From NCBI GenBank assembly GCA_040757115.1, contig JBFLYA010000021.1, forward strand, positions 1-30,236: a DNA stretch of 30,236 nucleotides, in the 5' to 3' direction. Both the position numbers and the translations under genes were made by a program. Below, piece by piece: positions 25,978 to 29,789 of the stretch. How positions within the stretch are numbered: position 1 is the stretch's first letter; each line of letters begins with the position of its first letter. This DNA is from a bacterium. GTDB lineage: Bacteria; UBA9089; CG2-30-40-21; SBAY01. The notes beneath the pieces were generated by a model, which saw nothing but the letters and a program-made list of their open reading frames with translations, searched no databases and had not been told where the DNA came from.

Positions 25978-26102
25978 TATTCAGCCACTGATTAGCACGG
26001 ATAGAAAAATAAAATCAGTGTTTCATCTGTGTCCATCTCTGGCTGAATAGTTACCAATAGATTTTAATTTTTTTCTCTGCCTCTGTTATGTAAAGTGTCA
26101 AG

Positions 26103-26583
26103 CTTTTTTTATTTTTTTATTTAAGAAAAAAGTCTACGACTTATCTCTACAACTTTCTTTGCTTTCTCTTTTTAGCCTGTCGAGGTTGTCGGGGCACCCG
26201 CTTGCGGGTCGTCCTCGAGCAGGGGTTTTCTCTAAAGCAGAGGCAAAGGGGTTAGATGATTGACAACTTCTTTTATTAACCCCTTTGGAGAAAAGAGAAA
26301 ACCTAAATAAAAGTCCTTAAAGATATATCTGTTGCAGTGAACAGTCGCGAAAAATGAATCTTGTACCTCCTTTTGTTCTTTGATAGATATAAAAGGTAAC
26401 CGTAACTTTCTATTATACGTGGCAACCTGAGTTTTTATAAAACAGCAGGTTCACACTCATTGATTCTTTCGTTTTGATTTTTTTGAGTCTCTTTCTGTGC
26501 TCGAGTATTACTCTTTCACGGACCGAGGCGTCTCAAAAAAATACGTTACCAATTACAATTGATACCTTATCAAAGACCACTAT
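26103..26583 (-). ncRNA. candidate bridge-RNA region of the IS1111-type element
   Basis: Non-coding DNA downstream of the transposase, where IS1111 elements encode their guide RNA (established for the family). Two stem / internal loop / hairpin structures are visible. The first has outer stem 26224-26233 with 26294-26303 (10 bp), inner stem 26244-26254 with 26277-26287 (11 bp) and internal loops AAAGCAGAGG and GAGAAA. The second has CGAGG/CCTCG around hairpin ACCCGC-TT-GCGGGT (26181-26217). On the RNA strand the first loop reads GCCTCTG, which matches the target next to the left junction (26078-26085, TGCCTCTG). RNA ends unknown. Confidence 0.5.
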
Positions 26584-27654
26584 TTAAAAATGTGGAATAT
26601 ACTTTCTTTCTTCTTTTAAGATACGATAGATAATCGCAGTTAATTTACGAGCAACAGCAGTAATGGCTTTCTTTTTAGCAATCTCTGAATGATGTCTGTT
26701 TTTGATTCGGCAATAAAACTGATAGAGTCTGATGTCTTTTCGAATGGCAACCCAGGCTGCTTCTATAAGTAGAAACCGTAATACCTTGTCGCCTAAATGA
26801 GTAATAGAGCCTCTATTAACATCATCACCAGTAGAGTTTTCTCTTGGCACAAGACCAACAAAGGAGGCTAATTCTCGTGGGTCTTTTAAGTTCTTGGGAT
26901 CACCTATGTTACCGAGTAAAGTAACTGCCACAACAAATCCTATTCCAGGAATTGATTGCAAAAAACTGAGGTAATTCTTAATGTTTTCATGGCTGTTACA
27001 AAAACTTCTTAGAACACGGTGAATGGTTAATAGTTGTTTTCGGGCATAGAAAAGGTCATCTATCAACATATCTAAACAATCTCGAATAGCTGGCTGACAA
27101 GGAATCTTTTTGATTTCATTGATGTGGTTACAAGACCATTTTTGATAAGGGTCTTTGATATAACCATCCAGATGAGCAAACAAAAGTAAAGCTTTGATGC
27201 GTTGTTGAGTAACCTTACGCAAAGAAGCATAGTTCTGGCGAATTTTAACTAAATGACGAAGTTCTCGCCATTCATCTTGAGGTACTCTTATAGATTTTAA
27301 ACTCCCAGCTTTAAGTAGCGCCGTTAGTTTTACTGAATCTATACGGTTAGTCTTTACTCGTTCATTCGGTGCTTTAGGGATAGATAGTGGTGGCACAACC
27401 AGACAAGGAATATTTTTCTGTGTCAGATAGTCATAAAGATGATATCCTGTAGGACCTGCTTCGTAAGCACAGATAATCTGTTTGTTAGAGTAGTTGTTTT
27501 GCAGGTAATTATAAAAATATTGTGGTTGTGCTGGTATTGTTTTTGTCCGTTTCATAATATTGTGGTCCTGAATGGTAAAAGAAAAACTCTTTTTATCCAC
27601 ATCTAGCCCAATGAATAGTTCATAATCTTTCGGTAAATATGTTGTTTGTGTCAT
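26584..27654 (-). CDS. IS110-family transposase
   Basis: 356 residues, intact. The N-terminal DEDD RuvC-like domain has GLDVDKKSF, CAYEAGPTGYHLYDYL and NRIDSVKLTALL. The C-terminal Tnp20 domain has SIPGIGFVVAVTLL, ASFVGLVPRENSTGD, RGSITHLGDKVLRFLL and EAAW, which bear the conserved Ser region. The start is ATG 27654, with AAGGAGG 9 bases upstream and a promoter at 27697-27725. It probably uses an RNA guide encoded in the adjacent 480-base region. Confidence 0.94.
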   Translation of the reverse strand: MTQTTYLPKDYELFIGLDVDKKSFSFTIQDHNIMKRTKTIPAQPQYFYNYLQNNYSNKQIICAYEAGPTGYHLYDYLTQKNIPCLVVPPLSIPKAPNERVKTNRIDSVKLTALLKAGSLKSIRVPQDEWRELRHLVKIRQNYASLRKVTQQRIKALLLFAHLDGYIKDPYQKWSCNHINEIKKIPCQPAIRDCLDMLIDDLFYARKQLLTIHRVLRSFCNSHENIKNYLSFLQSIPGIGFVVAVTLLGNIGDPKNLKDPRELASFVGLVPRENSTGDDVNRGSITHLGDKVLRFLLIEAAWVAIRKDIRLYQFYCRIKNRHHSEIAKKKAITAVARKLTAIIYRILKEERKYIPHF

Positions 27655-27696
27655 AAGTTTGTCCTCCTTATTTTAGTCAGTTAATACTTTTTGTAT

Positions 27697-27725
27697 AGTA
27701 TACCACAAAATCTTTCGCAGGTCAA
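27697..27725 (-). promoter_or_regulatory. promoter of IS110 transposase
   Basis: Minus strand TTGACC (27720-27725), 17-bp spacer, TATACT (27697-27702). The -35 hexamer overlaps the end region of the element. Confidence 0.7.
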
Positions 27726-27773
27726 ACTTGACACTTTATCATATCATCTCTGCGGTGAACAGTTACTGCTTTT

Positions 27774-29503: not shown

Positions 29504-29745
29504 GTAACTATTCAGCCACTGATTAACACGGATTAGCACGGATAAATAGTCAGAAGACAGAACTCAGAGGAGAGAGGAGAAATGGGGAAACGGAGAAAGG
29601 GAGAAACAGAGAAGGAGAGGAGACACGAGGTACTATACCTGAATTTTCAGCCATCAGCCTTCAGCCTGATTACGGACACGGAAAACGGACACGATTTACG
29701 AATTTTCAGTATTTCATCTGTGTCCATCTGTGGCTGAATAGTTAC
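29504..29745. mobile_element. GTAAC-type element E7 with extra end
   Basis: Runs GTAACTATTCAGCCACTG (29504) to GTGGCTGAATAGTTAC (29745). The interior has purine-rich GGAGA runs and ATCAGCCTTCAGCCTGATTA. The 8-bp flanks differ (TGCCTGAT, AATTTTTG). A second, unpaired end GTAACTATTCAG lies at 29753-29764, so part of another copy may be lost. Confidence 0.75.
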
Positions 29746-29789
29746 AATTTTTGTAACTATTCAGCAAAAAGAAGGATGATGGAGAAAGA

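What the first reader, a model, noticed from the sequence alone, without database searches (positions are those of the whole stretch)
26078..26303. Candidate bridge RNA whose internal loop matches the IS insertion site
In the 480-base non-coding part of the IS1111-type element, a 10-bp stem, asymmetric internal loop (10 and 6 bases), 11-bp stem and 22-base loop form the layout of a target-binding loop. On the RNA strand one side of the internal loop reads (U)GCCUCUG; the DNA at the left junction is TGCCTCTG (26078-26085). The other side reads UUUCUC, also present in the target (TTTTCTC). Guide RNAs of IS110/IS1111 elements are established; this element, its fold and its repeat-targeting guide are inference. 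It would be a guide aimed at a multicopy repeat.
Basis: partly seen in the sequence, partly recalled or inferred. Interest (0 to 1): 0.75.

Follow-up and report, generated by a model that had tools for sequence, protein, structure and literature searches.

The report
Repeat-targeting IS1111 element with guide-type RNA

Summary
The element is real: an IS1111-type IS, 26085-27749 (minus strand, 1665 bp), with a DEDD/Transposase_20 gene, subterminal inverted repeats and a 3' non-coding region of 499 bp. A consensus promoter forms only when its ends join. A close relative in a sister genome gave 45 junctions (25 left, 20 right). With those of the window's genome, 24 of 28 left junctions lie at TNCACCNCAG| of a repeat found about 150 times per genome, and flanks rejoin to the empty repeat. 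A control, IS4321, gives guides at once with my scan (p<0.01). The best alternative in the window is T 26396-26403 plus B 26333-26346 (4 of 1500 shuffles), tentative. Known kind (compare ISPa11 on REP, IS4321 on transposon ends); the exact guide is unresolved.

The parts
26085..27749 (-). IS1111-type insertion sequence, 1665 bp
   Evidence: Ends set by the published 7-bp/3-bp rule and confirmed by many junctions and empty sites in two genomes
26584..27654 (-). DEDD transposase, 356 aa
   Evidence: Pfam DEDD_Tnp_IS110 and Transposase_20; NCBIfam transpos_IS110 207 bits against a 140 cut-off
27724..27738 (-). left subterminal inverted repeat
   Evidence: 15 nt, 93% complementary to 26091-26105
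26091..26105 (-). right subterminal inverted repeat
26096..26101 (-). -35 half TTGACA of the promoter formed when the ends join
   Evidence: TTGACA-N17-TATGAT on the joined ends
27738..27743 (-). -10 half TATGAT of the same promoter
26147..26324 (-). conserved ncRNA core (stems P1, P2, P3)
   Evidence: covariance model R1 and compensatory changes
26295..26303 (-). P1 5' arm (3' arm 26224-26232)
26277..26287 (-). P2 5' arm (3' arm 26244-26254), 22-nt apical loop
26238..26245 (-).
   Evidence: identical in C47 and C112, similar in C29 and G006; p 0.1-0.45
26396..26403 (-). candidate guide pairing with the top strand (ACGGUUAC), tentative
   Evidence: with the next part, 4 of 1500 shuffles
26333..26346 (-). 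candidate guide pairing with the bottom strand (GACUGUUCACUGCA), tentative
   Evidence: 14-nt match to the left flank with 2 wobbles, p 0.0075
26480..26542 (-). domain D1 (outer stem, two loops, small hairpin), second candidate target-binding domain
   Evidence: layout like IS4321; differs among three copies in its two loops
26060..26084 (.). repeat flank on the transposase-3' side (target half)
   Evidence: about 40 partial copies in the same genome
27750..27768 (.). repeat flank on the transposase-5' side (CTGCGGTGAACAGTTAC..., target half)
   Evidence: 147 pattern matches in the genome

Best explanation
26085-27749 is an IS1111-type element. Its transposase most likely binds an RNA from the 3' non-coding region (seekRNA or bridge RNA), excises the element as a circle whose joined ends make a promoter, and reinserts it at one point, TTCACCGCAG|AGA, of a short dispersed repeat. 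Shown here: the family of the transposase, the ends, the empty and filled sites, site preference over many insertions, a conserved and covarying ncRNA. Inferred: that the ncRNA is the guide and that the circle forms.
For: Pfam and NCBIfam matches; sTIRs; 7/3-bp end rule gives flanks that rejoin exactly to the empty repeat CACCGCAG|AGACACAGAGACG; 24 of 28 left junctions at the first CAG of the repeat (binomial p about 1e-8 against one in three); right flank AGACGC in 0 of 22 insertions against 20 of 53 empty repeats (Fisher p 0.0004); junction promoter TTGACA-N17-TATGAT; ncRNA conserved with compensatory pairs in P1, P2 and P3, also next to a 26%-identical transposase; nearly the whole non-coding region kept in a copy without transposase gene.
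Against: No RNA data. No guide with clear statistical support spans the junction in the window, whereas IS4321 gives one at once. The body of the multicopy sister element is absent from its assembly, so its guide could not be compared. Repeat preference alone does not prove RNA guidance.
Confidence: 0.82

Rival explanations
1. One reading: the P1/P2 internal loop is the target-binding loop and UGCCUCUG is the guide.
For: RNA CUUUGCCUCU matches the flank CTCTGCCTCT up to the junction, 10 nt with one wobble.
Against: p 0.1-0.45; the same loop in elements with other flanks (C47, C112) and nearly the same in C29; both sides match one strand, against the T/B rule; last base is IS.
Confidence: 0.08
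2. The guides are T 26396-26403 and B 26333-26346, on both sides of the hairpin ACCUUUU...AAAAGGAGGU, pairing with GTAACYGTTCACCGCA next to the junction.
For: B match p 0.0075; T plus B in IS1111 order and overlapping on the target, 4 of 1500 shuffles; pairs with the stretch (YGTTCACCGCA) that most insertions share.
Against: Post hoc; both lie on one side of the junction, unlike IS4321; B is missing in C47; the stretch could be a stray piece of the repeat.
Confidence: 0.3
3. The guides are the two loops of domain D1 (26480-26542).
For: Layout outer stem, loop, hairpin, loop as in IS4321; in the sister-genome copy the loops read UCUGCG and CAGAGA, both matching the junction; loops differ among copies that are otherwise about 90% identical.
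Against: Not significant (p 0.24 there, 0.96 in the window).
Confidence: 0.25
4. Site choice is by the protein alone, or by the folded repeat DNA; the RNA has another role.
For: The repeat is conserved and CAG-rich; guide matches in the window are weak.
Against: All IS1111 elements studied in PMC11187229 use an RNA; the RNA here is conserved more than the protein.
Confidence: 0.1

Closest known systems
ISPa11 (IS1111 family, targets P. aeruginosa REP repeats; PMC11187229)
   Same: IS1111 layout, 3' non-coding RNA region, one fixed insertion point in a dispersed repeat
   Different: different repeat; guide shown experimentally there, unresolved here
IS4321 (IS1111 family, targets the terminal repeat of Tn21-type transposons)
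   Same: 7/3-bp ends, 3' non-coding region, transposase alignable (24% identity)
   Different: its two guides flank a small hairpin and span the junction; no equally clear pair in the window
IS621 bridge RNA (IS110 group; PMC11208160)
   Same: DEDD recombinase with a structured RNA; insertions largely in REP elements

Membership tests
IS1111 family | DEDD transposase with PF01548 and PF02371, about 330-360 aa | tested here: met
IS1111 family | G-L-x-P-x4-S/T-G motif | tested here: met
   GLVPRENSTG in the alignment
IS1111 family | subterminal inverted repeats of about 11-13 bp | tested here: met
   15 nt, 93%
IS1111 family | 7-bp and 3-bp terminal extensions, no target duplication | tested here: met
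   flanks rejoin to the empty repeat; the left repeat needs a 1-nt bulge to reach ATG
IS1111 family | long non-coding region 3' of the transposase gene | tested here: met
   499 bp from stop codon to the IS end
IS1111 family | promoter formed at the circle junction | tested here: met
   sequence only: TTGACA-N17-TATGAT
IS1111 seekRNA / bridge RNA | conserved RNA secondary structure in that region | tested here: met
IS1111 seekRNA / bridge RNA | two segments complementary to opposite target strands, top-strand one first, overlapping at the insertion point | tested here: inconclusive
   method finds them in IS4321 (p<0.01); window best p 0.9 with junction overlap, alternative pair 4 of 1500 without
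IS1111 seekRNA / bridge RNA | RNA bound by the transposase and needed for transposition | not testable with these tools
   needs experiment

The most novel reading that the evidence does not exclude
A lineage of IS1111-type elements in which one RNA scaffold is shared and exchanged between transposases that are only about 26% identical, with short elements that keep the RNA region but lack the gene, and with guides lying beside rather than across the insertion point.
Probability: 0.15. Interest if true: 0.55.

Novelty: new member of a known kind. Interest (0 to 1): 0.36.

Why it matters
It adds a well-supported natural case of an IS1111-type element aimed at a dispersed repeat outside the model bacteria, with empty and filled sites to define the target to the base. 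It also shows how easily an 8-base match in a pyrimidine-rich loop can be mistaken for a guide, and gives a control-tested scan (hairpin with T and B segments) for finding the real ones. The RNA core being better conserved than the protein would, if it holds in more elements, bear on how guide RNAs and recombinases are paired.

Tried and rejected
Single-protein scans of genome and viral contigs and a degenerate loop pattern in viral contigs: no relative. Alignment scan of genome contigs: only relatives of about 26-34% for near-full-length matches, and none of those tested carried this RNA core. Rfam: nothing credible. The ends first set at 26088-27745 were dropped for 26085-27749 once many junctions were seen. 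The match GUAGAGAUAA at 26139-26149 was dropped: no partner segment. A donor-guide reading of the apical loop (AUCAUCU) was dropped: not significant. C29 gives a T-hairpin-B pair (p 0.02) only if its ends are set by an AG core and not by the 7/3 rule, so it is not used as proof.

Full report
What was checked. The finding lies in the 3' non-coding region of an IS110/IS1111 transposase gene on the minus strand (26584-27654). The text TGCCTCTG at 26078-26085 is correct.

Ends and target. IS1111 elements have 7 bp outside the left subterminal repeat and 3 bp outside the right one, and make no duplication (PMC11187229). Applied here this gives 26085-27749. The window's genome (G000) has one full copy, one left end (C59) cut off after the first codons of the gene, and a short copy on C47. 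A sister genome of the same genus (G005) holds 25 left ends and 20 right ends of a close relative (most left ends 97-98%, right ends 92-95% identical), most at contig ends; two of the left ends belong to shorter, more diverged copies. Of 28 left junctions in both genomes, 24 end in TNCACCNCAG; the others end in ACGCAG, CCACAG, TCACAG or AAAAG. Right flanks begin with AG, mostly AGACACAGAGACGCAG. Empty repeats read CACCGCAG|AGACACAGAGACG, exactly the rejoined flanks. The repeat pattern GTAACNNTTCACCNCAGAG occurs 147 times in G000 and 158 in G005, its reversed control never. The repeat offers several CAG|AG points, but the element takes the first one (p about 1e-8 against one in three), and no insertion has AGACGC on the right although 20 of 53 empty repeats do (p 0.0004). 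So the target is specific and longer than CAGAG.

Joining the ends gives TTGACA-N17-TATGAT, as known for circles of this family.

The RNA. DNA and covariance-model searches found the core (26147-26324) in the C47 short copy, in two C112 copies, in a G005 element (C29) whose transposase is only 26% identical, in a G006 remnant, and in a diverged short element on C47 (L212, 36.5 bits). P1, P2 and P3 keep pairing through changes on both sides: P2 AAAGGGGUUA/UAACCCCUUU, AAAGAGGUUA/UAACCUCUUU, AAAGGGAUUA/UAAUCCCUUU and a wholly different pair in L212; P3 CCUG/CAGG, CCCG/CGGG, CUAC/GUAG. This is strong support for a structured RNA. No Rfam family matches. The C47 element keeps both ends and nearly the whole non-coding region but has no transposase gene.

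The guide. The 3' side of the loop is CCTCTGCTTTA in the window, C47 and C112, CTCCTGCTTCA in C29 and TTCCTACTTCA in G006. The right flanks are AGAGGCAG (window), AGACCCGG (C47), and AGG-TGACCC (C112 and C29). Caveat: C47 lacks the gene and C112 is a remnant, so their flanks need not be the product of their own RNA. The match scores p 0.1 to 0.45 against dinucleotide shuffles and about 0.2 for shuffled targets.

Control. The same scan on IS4321, target known, returned AAAACGGAAAG, hairpin GGCU-CAUUGA-AGCC, UAUUUUCUG: both strands, right order, across the junction, score 38 against a null maximum of 31. For the window no hairpin reaches this (best 21, p 0.9). Without asking for junction overlap the best segment is GACUGUUCACUGCA (26333-26346; p 0.0075), and with ACGGUUAC (26396-26403) it forms a pair in the right order overlapping on the target, reached by 4 of 1500 shuffles. 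Domain D1 (26480-26542) has the IS4321 layout and varies in its loops between copies, but is not significant. I leave the guide position open and prefer the region upstream of P1.

Verdict. A new member of the IS1111 family aimed at a dispersed repeat, like ISPa11 on REP.

Noticed in passing
26191-26213: A 23-25 nt hairpin repeat (GACGACCCGCAAGCGGGTGCCCC) sits in the P3 loop of the RNA and recurs almost unchanged at many unrelated places in several genomes of the phylum; it looks like a small mobile or spreading repeat.
   Followed up: partly
L003 (G005 C29), 2640-2792: An IS with a transposase only 26% identical carries a closely similar RNA core (72% identical in the DNA match); RNA better conserved than protein.
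   Followed up: partly
L097 about 1462-1897 and L212 about 1455-1760: Short elements without transposase gene: C47 keeps both ends and nearly the whole RNA region; L212 has the RNA core between possible inverted-repeat ends.
   Followed up: partly
L099 and L098 (G000 C112): Two copies of the RNA core in a duplicated rhs-like region; same loop as the window but right end and flank of the C29 type.
   Followed up: partly
L177 1494-1644: A second left end in the window's genome; the transposase gene stops matching about 14 codons in, apparently because other mobile DNA was inserted there.
   Followed up: no
25978-26049 and 29505-29750: Other dispersed repeats that share the GTAACTATTCA start (GTAACTATTCAGCCACTGATTAACACGG...), often as inverted pairs; origin of this repeat class unexplained.
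   Followed up: no
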